From assembly GCA_021849045.1 (NCBI GenBank), contig JAJZTK010000008.1, forward strand, positions 1-56,125: DNA of 56,125 bases, written 5' to 3'. How positions within the stretch are numbered: the stretch's first letter is position 1; the number at the start of each line of letters is the position of its first letter. This stretch comes from Deltaproteobacteria bacterium. Lineage in GTDB: Bacteria; Desulfobacterota; Desulfuromonadia; Geobacterales; DSM-12255. The notes beneath the pieces were generated by a model. That model ran no database searches. It saw nothing but the letters and a program-made list of their open reading frames with translations, and was not told the DNA's origin. Position numbers and translations under genes: made by a program. This document shows positions 19,265 through 26,730 of this stretch, piece by piece.

Positions 19265-19774
19265 CTATGACGTTACCAGCCGTTGCAAATCCTTGATCAG
19301 CAGAAACAGGTGGTACGGATCGGTTGGGCTTGGCTCAAAGCCCCAGCCCAGATACCAGTTCCGTGCGGGGTCATCCTTGGCATGGACAATGAGCGCCCGG
19401 ATGCCGGCAAGATCGGCCGCCTGCATCGTTCGCAGCAGGGCATCTTTCAGCAGAGCGCGGCCGAGGCCGCTCCCCTGGTGATCCCGGTCAACCGCCAGGC
19501 GCGCCAGAATCATCACCGGCACCGGATGCCGTGCCAATCCCTTTCTTACCCGACCGGTTGCGTCTGCCGGCTCCACGCTGCCGACAGCCAGGCTGTAAAA
19601 CCCGGCCACCGCGCCATCCTGGCAACAGACATAGGTCTGGGCACTGTTTGCCTTCTGGTTTATCATGGCAAAGCGTTGCAGAAACTGGTTCAGTGCGGGT
19701 TGGCCGCAATCGAAAGAGGTGACGTTATCGGTCACCTCCATCTTGCGGACAGGTTCGTAGCGCGCCGCCTTCAA
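19265..19774 (-). CDS. GNAT-family toxin (TacT/AtaT-like acetyltransferase)
   Basis: 169 residues. The GNAT acetyl-CoA motif is ILARLAVDRDHQGSGLGRALLKDAL, with upstream VTSFDCGQPALNQFLQRFA and downstream HAKDDPARNWYLGWGFEPSPTDP, the pattern of tRNA-acetylating toxins. Such toxins acetylate the amino group on charged tRNA and block translation. It overlaps the DUF1778 antitoxin stop by 4 bp, the standard TacAT order (antitoxin first). A housekeeping acetyltransferase is unlikely given this pairing. Confidence 0.88.
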   Translation of the reverse strand: MKAARYEPVRKMEVTDNVTSFDCGQPALNQFLQRFAMINQKANSAQTYVCCQDGAVAGFYSLAVGSVEPADATGRVRKGLARHPVPVMILARLAVDRDHQGSGLGRALLKDALLRTMQAADLAGIRALIVHAKDDPARNWYLGWGFEPSPTDPYHLFLLIKDLQRLVTS

Positions 19775-20052
19775 TCCAGCACGCCCGGCTTGGTCAACAG
19801 GCTTTTCAGGCGGGAGCGTGATGCCGCCACAGGCTGGTCAAGAACCTGCTGGAATGCCTGCCACTGCTCATCGTTCAGCACAAAGCGCCTGCGGTCGGCA
19901 AGCGCCTGATTGGCGGCGGTTATCCCTGCATCCAGCAGAAATTCGCTGACGCTTTTGTGACAGGCCCGCGCGGCCTCCTGAAACAACTGCTTTACCGACG
20001 CGTTGGTGCGCACATCGATACGCTCGGTTTTGGGCATGGCAATGGTCGGCAT
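19771..20052 (-). CDS. DUF1778 ribbon-helix-helix antitoxin
   Basis: 93 residues. An N-terminal RHH DNA-binding segment (KTERIDVRTNASVKQLFQEAARACHKSVSEFLLDAG) is followed by a C-terminal toxin-binding tail (RRRFVLNDEQWQAFQQVLDQP). I chose ATG at 20052 for its AAGGAGG site; the frame is open to 20130 but without one. It should neutralise the GNAT toxin and repress the shared promoter at 20083-20112. Confidence 0.87.
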   Translation of the reverse strand: MPTIAMPKTERIDVRTNASVKQLFQEAARACHKSVSEFLLDAGITAANQALADRRRFVLNDEQWQAFQQVLDQPVAASRSRLKSLLTKPGVLD

Positions 20053-20082
20053 GTACGTATCCTCCTTCATCCGGGATACGGT

Positions 20083-20112
20083 CATTGTACTGTACGGACA
20101 ATGTACTGACAA
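20083..20112 (-). promoter_or_regulatory. Promoter and operator of the DUF1778/GNAT pair
   Basis: Minus-strand TTGTCA (20112-20107) and TACAAT (20089-20084) are 17 bp apart. An inverted repeat CATTGT (20083-20088) with ACAATG (20098-20103) covers the -10. This fits autoregulation by the RHH antitoxin. Confidence 0.55.
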
Positions 20113-20118
20113 GGATAA

Positions 20119-20807
<689 letters not shown>

Positions 20808-21110: not shown

Positions 21111-21386
21111 ATGCACTGGACTGTTACCTTTACCGGCAAGGCGAAAAAACAGATTGAAAAGCTGCCTGAACGGGTACGACTGCTGCTTTTTCAGCTTGCC
21201 AGAGAGATAGAAGCAGCAGGTCCGGTACGGGGCGATTGGCCCAACTATTCAAAGCTCGGCAGCAACCGGCATCACTGTCACCTCAAAAAAGGGCAGCCGA
21301 CCTATGTCGCGGTCTGGAGTGAAGACCGTAGCGCCGTATCAGTGGAGATAATCTATGCAGGCACACACGAAAAGGCACCCTATTGA
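21111..21386 (+). CDS. RelE/HigB-type toxin
   Basis: 91 residues. RelE/ParE fold: VTFTGKAKKQIEKLPERVRLLLFQLAREIEAAGPVRGDWPNYSKLG, then HHCHLKKGQPTYVAVW and a C-terminal EIIYAGTHEKAPY. Family members cut mRNA in the ribosomal A site. The toxin gene comes first and the XRE antitoxin second with a 32-bp overlap, the HigBA order. Confidence 0.85.
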   Translation: MHWTVTFTGKAKKQIEKLPERVRLLLFQLAREIEAAGPVRGDWPNYSKLGSNRHHCHLKKGQPTYVAVWSEDRSAVSVEIIYAGTHEKAPY

Positions 21387-21705
21387 TGACTTCGTAACAC
21401 TGCAGATTCGAGTTCACCGCGCCAATGTGCGGCAAGTGCAGCGCTACGTCGCATCACTTGAAAATGACGAAAACGGTTCATACAGTGTGGCAGAAGTCTT
21501 TCCGGAATATATCGGCAAGGGGCAGGAGCTGGCACTGCGCGCGTACCGTCTCCGTGAAGGGCTTACCCAGAAGCAGCTGGCCGAGCGTACCGGCATTTCC
21601 CAGCACCATATCAGCGAGTTGGAAACCGGAAAGCGAGCTATCGGCAAGGAACGGGCGAAGAAACTGGCCGAGGCACTGCACTGCGACTATCGACTGTTAC
21701 TGTAG
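21355..21705 (+). CDS. XRE-family antitoxin (HigA-type)
   Basis: 116 residues. The C-terminal HTH (RLREGLTQKQLAERTGISQHHISELETGKRAIGKERAKKLAEAL) is a clear XRE domain. The N-terminal about 45 residues (FVTLQIRVHRANVRQVQRYV) probably bind the toxin. The start at 21355 lies inside the toxin gene. A later start is possible but would trim the N-terminal part. Confidence 0.85.
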   Translation: MQAHTKRHPIDDFVTLQIRVHRANVRQVQRYVASLENDENGSYSVAEVFPEYIGKGQELALRAYRLREGLTQKQLAERTGISQHHISELETGKRAIGKERAKKLAEALHCDYRLLL

Positions 21706-21803
21706 TCAGGCAGCATATCTCAAGTGCCTGTGCAATGACGTGCCCCAGCATTTTCCCAGTCCCTTTTAACGTGCGACAAGAAGGCCGCTAATTTGCCGGC
21801 TGA

Positions 21804-22013: not shown

Positions 22014-24581
22014 TCATACCGCAGCTTTATTCCGAATCGCTTCAAAGTCCTTCCCTTCCGGCATGACAAAGAGGCAGGTCCCGTTGCTTCGCTTTTCCCA
22101 TAGTTCGCCGAGCTGCCGTTTTTCCTTGTTTTCGGGCAGGTGCCAGTCCCGTTTGTTTTTATACTCGACGGCAAGAGTCTTGCCGTTTTCCAGTTGGCAG
22201 AGAAAGTCGGGATAAAATCGGTCGCTGCCGGTTTGCAAGGAGAAGGAGGTTTTCTTGCACTCGACGTTGCGAATCCAGGATTTCACCCCTTCAAGCTGGG
22301 TTGCCAGAAAAAGGGCACATTCAAATTCTTCCCCATCTCCTTTGAGATTGCCTATTTGCGGGAAAAAGTGCTTGGGCAGGTCGGTAAAGCCGCAATAGAT
22401 GGAGTCGTAGGCGTACCGCCCCTGCTCGAAAATAACCTGGCAACTGTCGTTCACGAGAAAATCGTCCGGCGAGAGCAGCAGCTGTTGATGTACCTGCTGC
22501 ATCGCCTGTTTTTTTGCTGCGCCGATCCGGGTCTCCAGGGCGTTCCGCAAGCGGAACTTGGCGTAGACCAACGCCTCAAGGGTAAAATCGTTCTGCAGCA
22601 GCCAGTCAACCGTCTTGTTGATAAAGGCGGCCTTTTCATCGGGCAGGAGCGATTCGTCATGAATGTTCCGTTCCAGCCAGGAAACCAAGTGCACCTGATC
22701 CCATCCTGAATGGTATTCGAACAGAAAGGTTTCCGCTACCCCCGGTGCGAACGGGTCGAACTTGATTTTTTCCTTTTCCAGATACATGGTTCCCCCTTGG
22801 GGGGACTTGTTTGCCGTGGTGAATGACGGTAATTCACTGGAAAAGTCGAGGAGACTCCACTCCCCCTGCAGCAGGTGGGTCGCTTCGAACGACTCCCACA
22901 GTTCACCTTGCCTGCACTGCAGCAGGGGTACTCTGAACTGCTTCCCCAGCTCCGCCGGCGTCTTTACCGGCACTGGTCGAGGTGCGCGCAAGCGGGTAAT
23001 TGCTTCCCGTACCGCCTGTTTGCCTTCAGGTGTCTGAAAGACCTCCTGCAACGCCTTAACCTGGGGTTCGGTAAATGATCCCTTCAGGGTAATGGAACCG
23101 TTTTCCGGGGTGATCTCGATTTTCTTGGCCAGATTGTCGGGAATCGCCTCCGGTGCGGGCAGCTCCGGAGTGCTATAGGTCAGACTTGTCTGCTGACTGA
23201 ACAGGTCGTCCGGCTGGATGTCGTCCTGAATGTTGATCAGATCCTTGGTTTCCTGGCGTTCAAAGCCGTTGCGCACCAGGCCGTCCTTGAGGCTCTCCAC
23301 CGTGGCGGCGAAATTGCTCGACGTCAGATAGGCGTAGGCCATGTTCAACTCGGGATGGCTCTTCTTTTCCGCATAGGGAAGGCGCAATATACGTCCCAGA
23401 ACCTGTTCTGCCGCCGTGGCCGAACTGGTGTTGCGCAACGAACAGAGCACATAAGCAAAGGGGCAGTCCCACCCTTCACGCAGCTTGTCCACGGTGATGA
23501 TGAAGCGGAAGCGGCATTCTTGGGAAAGGATGTTCTTACCAGCAATTTCATCCGTCGTACCGGTGGCAATGGCGATTTGCTCAGCCGGAATGGCGAAATC
23601 GTCCAGCAACGCCTGCTTCACCCGCTCCGGGGTCAGGGTCTCGTGGTCGGCGTCTTTCCGCTCCGCCTGCAGGAGCATGATCGGCCGCAGGTAGGTGCCG
23701 CCTGCCGCCCGTTCCTCGTCGGCTACCTGCTGCAACCGGTCCAGCCGGGCAATGGCGTCCCGCAGGGCGTCGAGCCAGTTGGGCCGCTGCACCAGAGTCA
23801 ACGGCATCTTGATCATGTCCTCTGAATGGAGCACCGAGGCGGAAACGCTATAGAGCACGTTACTGGGCTGATAAGTGCGGTCCGGGGTCGCCGTCAGCTC
23901 CAGAATGGCGCAGGGCTCGAACCGGGCCAGAGTGTCGAAGGCCAGCAGCGTCCCCTGGTTGTGGGCTTCGTCGACGATGACAAACGGCTTGCGCAACCGG
24001 AGCACATCCACCAGCGAGCCGTTGCCACGCGCGGCAGGGTCGGTGATCCCCTCGAAGTGGTCCATCAGGCTGCCGTTCTGTTTATAGACGCTCAGCCGTC
24101 CCGTCTCCTCCTGCTTGAAGGCCTGCATGGTGGCAACAATGATCACATTGGAGCCGCTGAGCAGGTGAGGTGTCATGCGCAGGGCTTCCTCGATATCCAG
24201 TACCGATACCTCGCCCAGGGCCGACGTCACCGCCTGACAAAGTATTGACGAAGGGTCGCGCAGTGCCTTCAGGGTCTGCTCCCGGATCGGTTCCGACGGC
24301 ACCAGCCAAAGGGTCAGGCTGCAGGAGGTATCCAGCAGGCTGCGGTTGATTCGTTCTATGGCCATTCCCGCCACCATGGTTTTGCCACCGCCGGTGGGGA
24401 TGCGCAGGCAGACATAGGGGACCGCTTCCAGGTTGCGCAGGGGGCGGTAGAAGAGTGCCATGCCACGCCATTCCTGGGTTGTCTGGGCGTAACACTCCCG
24501 GGGGGTGCCCGTGTCCCGGCAACGCTTGAGGAATAGTTCAAACCAGTTCAGCGCATCGGACTGATAACTTTTCAGGATCAT
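22014..24581 (-). CDS. res: Type III restriction-modification system, Res subunit
   Basis: 855 residues. SF2 helicase: Walker A PTGGGKT (62-68), DEAH box (204-207), motif III LTATPDR, and late motifs TVDKLREGWDCPFAYV and AEQVLGRILRLPYAEKK. The C-terminal nuclease is PD-(D/E)XK: Asp792 in YPDFLCQ, then Glu806 and Lys808 in AVEYKNK. With Mod it should cut unmodified DNA after ATP-dependent communication between sites. The ATG overlaps the mod stop by 4 bp. All motifs are intact. Confidence 0.92.
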   Translation of the reverse strand: MILKSYQSDALNWFELFLKRCRDTGTPRECYAQTTQEWRGMALFYRPLRNLEAVPYVCLRIPTGGGKTMVAGMAIERINRSLLDTSCSLTLWLVPSEPIREQTLKALRDPSSILCQAVTSALGEVSVLDIEEALRMTPHLLSGSNVIIVATMQAFKQEETGRLSVYKQNGSLMDHFEGITDPAARGNGSLVDVLRLRKPFVIVDEAHNQGTLLAFDTLARFEPCAILELTATPDRTYQPSNVLYSVSASVLHSEDMIKMPLTLVQRPNWLDALRDAIARLDRLQQVADEERAAGGTYLRPIMLLQAERKDADHETLTPERVKQALLDDFAIPAEQIAIATGTTDEIAGKNILSQECRFRFIITVDKLREGWDCPFAYVLCSLRNTSSATAAEQVLGRILRLPYAEKKSHPELNMAYAYLTSSNFAATVESLKDGLVRNGFERQETKDLINIQDDIQPDDLFSQQTSLTYSTPELPAPEAIPDNLAKKIEITPENGSITLKGSFTEPQVKALQEVFQTPEGKQAVREAITRLRAPRPVPVKTPAELGKQFRVPLLQCRQGELWESFEATHLLQGEWSLLDFSSELPSFTTANKSPQGGTMYLEKEKIKFDPFAPGVAETFLFEYHSGWDQVHLVSWLERNIHDESLLPDEKAAFINKTVDWLLQNDFTLEALVYAKFRLRNALETRIGAAKKQAMQQVHQQLLLSPDDFLVNDSCQVIFEQGRYAYDSIYCGFTDLPKHFFPQIGNLKGDGEEFECALFLATQLEGVKSWIRNVECKKTSFSLQTGSDRFYPDFLCQLENGKTLAVEYKNKRDWHLPENKEKRQLGELWEKRSNGTCLFVMPEGKDFEAIRNKAAV

Positions 24582-26182
24582 ACGCCACCCACTTTCAGCT
24601 TGTACGGTAGCTGCTTGAAGACGATCCCCTCGCGGCGCAGTCGATCCTGGTCAATGCGGCAGGCCGTGCCATAGATGACCCTCGGCCCGGCGTGTTTGGG
24701 AAGTGCCGCCAGGATGGAGGTGGTGAGCACATTCCCCCCCTGCGATGTCTTGTCCTTGAGGATGCCGTTATAAAGGAGATAAACTGCCGTACAGTTGTGG
24801 ACGCCAAGAAGGGGGCTATTCAGGTCGGCCGACTCGGACAACGGTCCGCCGGTTTCGGTGAAATACACATGCCGGGCCAGGTCGGCAAAGCTCACAGTAG
24901 GGCGGATGTTCCCCCGCTCGTCGAATAGTGGTTCACCCAGGTCGCAGAAGTGGAAGCCGCCACCAAGAGGTTCAATTCCCTTATGTCCTCGCACAGCACG
25001 AGACATTCGTTGCGTTGTGATCCCTTGACAAATATTGGGATCCATTTCTACCAAGACAAATCGGCGATTACCGCCATCCTTCTTGTTCAGTGCAAGTACC
25101 GCATGACCCGTTGTGCCGCTTCCGGCGAAGGAGTCGAGAATAATTGATTCCTTGTCTGTGGCTACATCCAGAATACGGCGTAGCAGTTTGGTAGGTTTGG
25201 GGGTGATAAAGACAGCCGCAGAATCTTCAAAGTCACAAATAGCCAATAGCTCTTTTTTTGCATCCTGCGTATGTCCTACCTCAGAATAAGGCCAGAGGGT
25301 TTGTGGTACTGTGCCTTGCTTTACTTCGGATAGGAATCTTTTGAGGCGGGGCATATTATCGCCAGATTTTCCCCACCAAATACGTTTTTCCCTATTGAGC
25401 CGCAAAAAATTTTCCTCAGAGAAACGCCAATACATGCCTTTCCCAGGACCGTCGATTACTCTGCCGGATGGGCATGTTATCGCGTATGTACCCGCTGAAT
25501 AGTAGTTTCTTGCTTGAAGATCCCCTGACGTCCAAGATCCTCGAGGGTCATTGTCGGGATTTTTGTATGCTTTTTCTTGTGCTTCTGTGCGTGTTATTAA
25601 AAATGGTGTCCACATTACAGCTTTTTTTGCATAAACAAGAATGAAATCATGGTCTTCTGAAAAATGCCGTGCTGAATTTTTCGGTGCAAAGACTTTTTGC
25701 CAAATTATCGTAGCTACGAAATTGTTTGCTCCAAATATGTCATCCATCATCACCCGCAGGAAATGCACCTCATTATCATCAATACTGATGAATATCACCC
25801 CGTCATCCCGCAGAAACTCCCTCAAAAGCGCCAATCGTGGATACATCATGCACAACCAGCGATCATGCCGGTCGAGCGTTTCCCCTTCCTTCCCCACGGC
25901 CTTGCCCAGCCACTCCCGCATCTCCGGGCTATTGACGTTATCGTTGTAGACCCACCCCTCGTTACCAGTGTTGTAGGGCGGATCGATGTAGATGCACTTC
26001 ACCTGCCCGGCGTAGTAGGGGAGCAGCGCCTTAAGTGCCAGCAGGTTGTCCCCCTGTACCAGCAAATTGCCGCTGGCCGGGTCGCCCGCGGACAGTTCAG
26101 GATTTTCTCTCAGCAGGTGAAACGGCACCTCGCGGTGATGATTGACAACGGCTTTTTTGCCGATCCAGTCTAGTTTTGGCAT
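24578..26182 (-). CDS. mod: Type III restriction-modification system, Mod DNA methyltransferase
   Basis: 534 residues. Beta-class N6-adenine methyltransferase order: catalytic DPPY (67-70, in IYIDPPYNTGNEGW) then SAM motif FAGSGTTG (352-359). The target recognition region between them (about 160-340) is encoded by visibly more AT-rich DNA than the flanks, as is common when recognition domains are exchanged. The C-terminal VFKQLPYKLKVGG is typical of Mod. No simple tandem repeat for phase variation is visible. First gene of mod-res; the promoter is covered by operators at 26197-26264. Confidence 0.93.
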   Translation of the reverse strand: MPKLDWIGKKAVVNHHREVPFHLLRENPELSAGDPASGNLLVQGDNLLALKALLPYYAGQVKCIYIDPPYNTGNEGWVYNDNVNSPEMREWLGKAVGKEGETLDRHDRWLCMMYPRLALLREFLRDDGVIFISIDDNEVHFLRVMMDDIFGANNFVATIIWQKVFAPKNSARHFSEDHDFILVYAKKAVMWTPFLITRTEAQEKAYKNPDNDPRGSWTSGDLQARNYYSAGTYAITCPSGRVIDGPGKGMYWRFSEENFLRLNREKRIWWGKSGDNMPRLKRFLSEVKQGTVPQTLWPYSEVGHTQDAKKELLAICDFEDSAAVFITPKPTKLLRRILDVATDKESIILDSFAGSGTTGHAVLALNKKDGGNRRFVLVEMDPNICQGITTQRMSRAVRGHKGIEPLGGGFHFCDLGEPLFDERGNIRPTVSFADLARHVYFTETGGPLSESADLNSPLLGVHNCTAVYLLYNGILKDKTSQGGNVLTTSILAALPKHAGPRVIYGTACRIDQDRLRREGIVFKQLPYKLKVGGV

Positions 26183-26196
26183 GGTCTCCTCTGTAA

Positions 26197-26264
26197 AACA
26201 ACCAGAGGGTTGTTATACAGAAGGCAGGCCCGTTTATCAACCTGTGGTTGGTAAAATTTTAACC
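26197..26264. promoter_or_regulatory. Operator cluster and divergent promoters of mod-res and the XRE controller
   Basis: IR1: AACAACC-AGAG-GGTTGTT (26197-26214). IR2: CAACC-TGT-GGTTG (26238-26250). A third partial site, GGT-AAAATTTT-AACC (26250-26264), follows. The minus-strand mod promoter TTGATA (26240-26235) and TATAAC (26217-26212), spacer 17, runs into IR2 at the -35 and IR1 at the -10. On the plus strand TTGGTA (26248-26253) with TTATTT-like sequence 17 bp on could serve the controller gene. Confidence 0.65.
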
Positions 26265-26322
26265 TTCAGTTTATTTTTACGCATCCCGGTTGTCTGTAAT
26301 CTGCACTAAACCGGAGAGCGAT

Positions 26323-26661
26323 ATGGCAATACTCAGCAGTAAGGAAATAGGAGGAAACTTGTTTCGGCTTCGCACCAAAGCGAGGTTGACCAGAGAACAG
26401 CTAGCTGAAAAGATAGGGGTGACTTCCCAACAGATACATAAGTATGAAACAGGCGCCAACAAGATGAACACCGACCGTCTGCAGCAGATTGCGCAGGCAC
26501 TTGATGTGCCGGTGCAATCGTTCTTTACCGATACCGATGAGACCCTTCCGATGGCTGTTTCAGAAAAACTCCTCCTCGATTCCTACCGGGCGATCCCCAA
26601 CAAGGAAATCCAGGAAAGCATCCTCAAGATAACCACCAACGCCACCAAACAGGCAGAGTAA
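26323..26661 (+). CDS. XRE-family controller-like regulator
   Basis: 112 residues from ATG at 26323 (CGGAGAGCGAT upstream); an in-frame ATG at 26290 lacks a ribosome site. N-terminal HTH: GGNLFRLRTKARLTREQLAEKIGVTSQQIHKYETGANKMNTDRLQQIAQAL. The C-terminal part is acidic then helical. Divergent from mod-res with palindromes between, which suggests a C-protein-like timing role. It is somewhat longer than classical C proteins (about 80-100 residues). Confidence 0.8.
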   Translation: MAILSSKEIGGNLFRLRTKARLTREQLAEKIGVTSQQIHKYETGANKMNTDRLQQIAQALDVPVQSFFTDTDETLPMAVSEKLLLDSYRAIPNKEIQESILKITTNATKQAE

Positions 26662-26691: not shown

Positions 26692-26730
26692 AAAAACGCC
26701 CCGCCGGATGATCTCCGGTGGGGCGTTTTT
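26692..26730. terminator. Bidirectional terminator between the controller gene and holA
   Basis: A 17-bp stem (one wobble pair) of AAAAACGCCCCGCCGGA with TCCGGTGGGGCGTTTTT and a 5-base loop, with T-runs on both strands. It serves the rightward controller gene and the leftward operon ending in holA, and marks the right edge of the island. Confidence 0.92.

What the first reader, a model, noticed from the sequence alone, without database searches (positions are those of the whole stretch)
26183..26322. C-protein-like operators placed on the type III mod promoter
Two perfect inverted repeats with the same CAACC...GGTTG half-sites overlap the -35 and -10 of the mod promoter; a third partial site follows toward the divergent XRE gene. 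Controller proteins are well known for type II R-M systems but are rarely described for type III. The geometry (repression of mod-res, possible self-control of the XRE gene) hints at a timing circuit for establishing the system in a new host.
Basis: partly seen in the sequence, partly recalled or inferred. Interest (0 to 1): 0.6.

Follow-up and report, generated by a model that had tools for sequence, protein, structure and literature searches.

The report
Switch protein beside type III restriction genes
A small DNA-binding protein gene sits back-to-back with a bacterial type III restriction-modification system, and the DNA between them carries repeated binding-site-like palindromes on the system's promoter, so the protein very probably represses the system; the same protein family is paired with several unrelated restriction systems in this bacterial order.

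Summary
The 140-nt gap between mod and the divergent XRE gene carries two CAACC...GGTTG palindromes, one over the -10/start region and one over the -35 of a good mod promoter (TTGATA-N17-TATAAC), plus a lone third half-site in the XRE promoter. The core pattern occurs 14 times in the 4.33-Mb genome, twice in this gap. The XRE belongs to a clade (99/99) whose members mostly diverge from several kinds of restriction-modification operon. In six such loci the same palindrome lies at the same distance from the XRE gene whatever the restriction type, so the operator tracks the regulator. Best reading: a dedicated repressor of mod-res that works like a controller protein. The "timing circuit" is not supported: mod and res overlap and share the promoter, so XRE cannot delay Res relative to Mod there. 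The stronger palindrome (O1) has an even spacing that does not fit the family's odd-spaced dyads. Binding and repression are untested.

The parts
26323..26661 (+). XRE (Cro/C1-type HTH) regulator gene, 112 aa: HTH plus conserved two-helix C-terminal tail
   Evidence: HTH_3 E 7.5e-12; C.BclI best solved relative; AF2 pLDDT 81
24578..26182 (-). mod, type III DNA methyltransferase, 534 aa
   Evidence: PADLOC MTase_III E 5.9e-215; N6_N4_Mtase
22014..24581 (-). res, type III restriction subunit, 855 aa; start overlaps mod stop (ATGA)
   Evidence: PADLOC REase_III E 6.3e-121; ResIII; overlap seen
26212..26240 (-). predicted mod promoter TTGATA-N17-TATAAC
   Evidence: direct reading; top divergent promoter by weight matrix; not listed by the consensus scan
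26190..26221 (.). palindrome O1, 14-bp arms, 4-nt spacer, over mod -10 and expected start point
26233..26255 (.). palindrome O2 (TCAAC-CTGTG-GTTGG core), over mod -35; fits the odd-spaced family operator
26288..26292 (+). third GGTTG half-site, beside the predicted XRE -10 (TGTAAT 26295-26300)
26692..26730 (.). strong hairpin ending in a T-run after XRE (terminator; XRE probably monocistronic)
   Evidence: fold -31.7 kcal/mol, z -6.5; not listed by the scan

Best explanation
The XRE protein is a dedicated transcriptional repressor of the mod-res operon. Shown by sequence: the divergent gene order, the two palindromes on the mod promoter, the family-wide link between XRE clade and palindrome, and the recurrence next to other restriction-modification operons. 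Inferred: a dimer binds O2 (5-bp half-sites, 5-bp spacer) over the -35 and also O1 over the -10/start point, shuts out RNA polymerase and holds mod-res at a low level. The lone half-site in its own promoter may let it limit its own synthesis. When the system enters a new host there is no XRE, so mod-res starts unrepressed (Mod first in the operon) and is throttled as XRE accumulates. This gives level control, or a burst then decline, not a delay of Res behind Mod. Whether something relieves repression during infection is unknown.
For: Palindromes beyond chance. Mod-XRE relatives: L153 (mod about 65%, XRE 55%) has ACTTCGGGTATG-N8-CATACCTGAAGT over mod promoter TTGAAT-N17-TATAAG; L161 has repeated 18-mers and inverted copies in the gap. 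The three closest Mod homologues without XRE (73, 71, 66%) lack the window's half-sites. Of 18 XREs in the window's clade (99/99), 12 face restriction-modification-type operons of several types. Motif follows XRE clade: CATACNTSAAGTATG-like site at -96 to -98 in six loci over type III, SNF2+MTase and PLD-helicase+IIG-MTase operons. Odd-spaced dyads enriched family-wide, z 4-6 for spacers 3, 5, 7. The dyad lies in the divergent promoter in 23 of 43 gaps against 12.4 expected. Closest solved relative is C.BclI.
Against: No binding or expression data. O1, the strongest palindrome here, has an even spacer, unlike the family's odd-spaced dyads, so it may be bound differently or not by this protein. 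Many family gaps, taken singly, have no significant palindrome (only 10 of 52 at p <= 0.05). Some close XRE homologues face genes that are not restriction genes (L146 acyltransferase, L155 unknown). Only three mod-XRE pairs of this Mod type were found, and L161 is distant.
Confidence: 0.72

Rival explanations
1. A type II-like controller: XRE activates its own gene from the upstream site(s) and represses mod, giving a delayed-expression timing circuit for establishment in a new host.
For: No strong XRE promoter was found (best 7.3 against 10.7 for mod); sites lie upstream of it; C proteins are the closest solved relatives.
Against: XRE looks monocistronic and res is co-directional with and overlaps mod, so no differential delay of Res is possible at this promoter; no complete operator was found at the XRE promoter.
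Confidence: 0.13
2. O1 is an RNA element: a hairpin in the mod leader that limits translation; only O2 is an XRE operator.
For: O1 is an almost perfect 14-bp stem with a 4-nt loop ending at the Shine-Dalgarno region; the 75-nt leader folds at -24.1 kcal/mol. Its even spacing does not fit the family operator.
Against: The best promoter puts the start point inside O1, so only one arm would be transcribed; O1 shares the CAACC/GGTTG core and a longer half-site (GGTTGTTATAC, GGTTGTTTTAC; O2 GGTTGATAAAC) with O2.
Confidence: 0.1
3. The XRE is an unrelated neighbour (for example a toxin-antitoxin or phage-type regulator left in a defence island), and the palindromes serve only its own control.
For: The gene lies in a region with toxin-antitoxin genes; the wider family also sits beside many genes unrelated to restriction; NCBIfam hits include RstR-type and antitoxin repressors, all below cut-off.
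Against: Repeated divergent pairing with restriction-modification operons, clustering of that label on the tree (8 changes, shuffled mean 14, 0 of 500 as low), and palindromes lying on the divergent promoter.
Confidence: 0.05

Closest known systems
Controller (C) proteins of type II restriction-modification systems (C.BclI, C.AhdI, C.Csp231I)
   Same: Small XRE-type HTH fold, best sequence and fold match; gene next to an R-M system; palindromic sites on the promoters.
   Different: 112 aa with a conserved two-helix C-terminal tail; gene divergent and monocistronic, not joined to the nuclease gene; target operon is type III mod-res, both genes under one promoter.
HsdC controller of the type I system of Mycoplasma gallisepticum (PMC9681074, PMC12707154)
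   Same: A controller-family gene beside a non-type-II system, reported to repress the whole operon.
   Different: Type I; gene at the head of the operon; no sequence relation tested here.
RptR repressor of type I R-M islands (PMC12255303)
   Same: Local repressor of a whole R-M operon through repeated palindromes over the -10; found in many genomes.
   Different: Not an XRE protein; 6-bp TAGCTA sites; first gene of the operon it controls.
BrxR/CapW WYL regulators (PMC9122601, PMC9122589)
   Same: A regulator family that co-localises with diverse defence systems.
   Different: WYL-domain proteins; different architecture.

Membership tests
C (controller) proteins | Small XRE/HTH_3 DNA-binding protein related to known C proteins | tested here: met
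   Profile E 1.2e-10 to C.BclI, 3.3e-7 to C.Csp231I; top Foldseek hit C.BclI, C.AhdI rank 7; not exclusive, since other XRE repressors also match
C (controller) proteins | Gene linked to a restriction-modification system | tested here: met
   mod-res adjacent; recurrent in the clade
C (controller) proteins | C gene co-transcribed with the nuclease gene so that it activates it late (typical type II layout) | tested here: not met
   Divergent gene with its own terminator; res lies with mod
C (controller) proteins | Operator with two dimer sites controlling the C gene's own promoter | tested here: inconclusive
   Two palindromes lie on the mod promoter; only a half-site lies in the XRE promoter
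C (controller) proteins | DNA binding, with activation at low and repression at high concentration | not testable with these tools
   Needs gel shift and reporter assays
Type III restriction-modification system | mod (N6/N4 MTase) followed by res (ResIII helicase-nuclease) | tested here: met
   MTase_III E 5.9e-215, REase_III E 6.3e-121; ResIII
BrxR/CapW WYL regulators | WYL domain | tested here: not met
   Pfam matched HTH families (and YdaS below cut-off) only

The most novel reading that the evidence does not exclude
A family of interchangeable XRE controllers that, in one bacterial order, is placed divergently on several unrelated kinds of restriction-modification operon (type III of several subfamilies, SNF2-helicase+MTase, PLD-helicase+IIG-like MTase) and carries its operator with it at a fixed distance, giving type III systems a dedicated transcriptional controller.
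Probability: 0.5. Interest if true: 0.65.

Novelty: new variant of a known kind. Interest (0 to 1): 0.5.

Why it matters
The type III control described in the reviews read is by separate promoters, antisense transcription, delayed translation or stability of Res, or phase variation. A dedicated promoter-level repressor would be a further control layer. A regulator clade that pairs with unrelated restriction systems, with an operator that follows the regulator, would mean that control is an exchangeable module of defence loci. It predicts testable cross-talk between systems that share an operator class.

Tried and rejected
Homologues from the wider phylum sit beside other genes (response regulators and others), not restriction genes, in the twelve inspected, so the link looks local to this order in this sample. 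Five plasmid Mod homologues inspected have no annotated divergent XRE neighbour, though PLSDB gene tables are incomplete. Per-locus palindrome tests were weak for many gaps; the pooled test by spacer and the clade-motif test were more informative. The clade motifs were written down after looking at the gaps, so their z-scores are descriptive. L152 (ligase neighbour, uncertain start), L159 (broken gene) and L144 (contig edge) were left out of pooled counts, as were near-copies. An RNA-hairpin reading of O1 was considered and kept as a rival.

Full report
1. What is there. The gap 26183-26322 separates mod (24578-26182, minus) from a 112-aa XRE gene (26323-26661, plus). mod and res match type III models strongly (MTase_III 5.9e-215, REase_III 6.3e-121) and overlap by the ATGA of start and stop. 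A strong hairpin with a T-run ends the XRE gene.

2. The palindromes are real. O1 (26190-26221) has 14-bp arms with one mismatch; O2 (26233-26255) has a perfect 5-bp core in 10-bp arms. Both share CAACC/GGTTG and a longer outward half-site: GGTTGTTTTAC, GGTTGTTATAC, GGTTGATAAAC, GGTTGGTAAAA. The third site is only a half-site. In the 4.33-Mb genome CAACCN{3,4}GGTTG occurs 14 times (control 8), twice here. The gap has the highest half-site count of any 140-nt stretch in the window. They overlap the two ends of a promoter TTGATA-N17-TATAAC for mod, the best divergent promoter in the gap, although a stricter consensus scan did not list it.

3. In 141 genomes of the order, XRE homologues and Mod homologues were located and their flanks read. 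Two further loci have mod and XRE divergent: L153 and L161. L153 carries ACTTCGGGTATG-N8-CATACCTGAAGT over a mod promoter TTGAAT-N17-TATAAG. L161 carries an 18-nt direct repeat and inverted copies. The three closest Mod homologues (73, 71, 66%) have no XRE and none of the window's half-sites; of seven XRE-less gaps checked, one (L200) has a single half-site. Several of them contain other short palindromes, so this control concerns the CAACC/GGTTG class, not palindromes in general.

4. The regulator, not the restriction type, carries the operator. The window's XRE lies in an 18-member clade (99/99) of which 12 face restriction-modification-type operons: type III or type III-like of several kinds (window, L142, L147, L149, L153), SNF2-helicase plus MTase (L143, L145, L148, and L158 judged from the start of its cut gene), PLD-helicase plus IIG-like MTase (L150, and L151 by likeness) and an HSDR_N/PLD-helicase locus (L154). 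More distant members L161, L185, L187 and L193 do too. In the sister sub-clade a CATACNTSAAGTATG-like site (10 to 14 of 14 positions) lies at -96 to -98 from the XRE start in L147, L148, L149, L150, L151 and L153, over unrelated operons. Other clades have TACAAC-N5-GTTGTA or ATACAC-N7-GTGTAT at matching places. Pooled over 44 gaps, dyads with spacers 3, 5 and 7 exceed shuffles (z 4.2, 5.6, 6.0), while even spacers do so less or not at all (best even: spacer 4, z 2.9). The dyad lies in the predicted divergent promoter in 23 of 43 gaps against 12.4 expected.

5. Mechanism. Sites on the -35 and on the -10/start point fit repression of mod-res. Because mod and res share that promoter, XRE cannot delay Res relative to Mod there; any order of appearance must come from gene order, translation, internal promoters or Res needing Mod, as discussed for EcoP1/EcoP15 (PMC3874151; PMC12707154). 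Control of XRE by itself is plausible (a half-site by its -10; several relatives have a full dyad there) but weak in this locus. O1's even spacing is unexplained.

6. Relation to known systems. Closest solved relatives include C.BclI (first), C.Csp231I and C.AhdI by profile, and C.BclI by fold. The gene order differs from type II C systems, and the predicted model has two extra C-terminal helices whose sequence is more conserved (mean identity 0.72) than the HTH (0.62) within the clade. The reviews read describe C proteins for type II and one type I system, none for type III; further searches of the held library found no such report. The library lacks most subscription papers, so absence is not proof.

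Noticed in passing
window 26287-26314; L153, L150, L147 gaps: A further inverted repeat spans the XRE -10 to its Shine-Dalgarno: CCGGTT...AACCGG in the window and GCCTCG...CGAGGC in the sister clade, so the letters differ but the pairing stays. Its role is unknown.
   Followed up: no
window 19771-20807 and 21111-21769: Toxin-antitoxin-type genes (TacA-like, Phd/YefM plus PIN, and small genes with an XRE match at 21529-21687) lie next to res; L153 also has a short gene pair beside its res, the second resembling a PIN toxin by eye.
   Followed up: partly
L156, L157, L160-L184, L225-L236: More distant XRE homologues sit divergently from unrelated cargo (zinc-ribbon, TPR, chemotaxis and other genes), often with TACAAC-N5-GTTGTA-type palindromes in the gap.
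   Followed up: partly
L100 / L159 and L205 / L227: Homologues with in-frame stops or a missing 5' part: decayed copies of the XRE gene.
   Followed up: no
L146 (G068): A close homologue (66%) faces an acyltransferase-SGNH gene, not a restriction gene, yet has TCAAC-TAATA-GTTGT in the gap.
   Followed up: no
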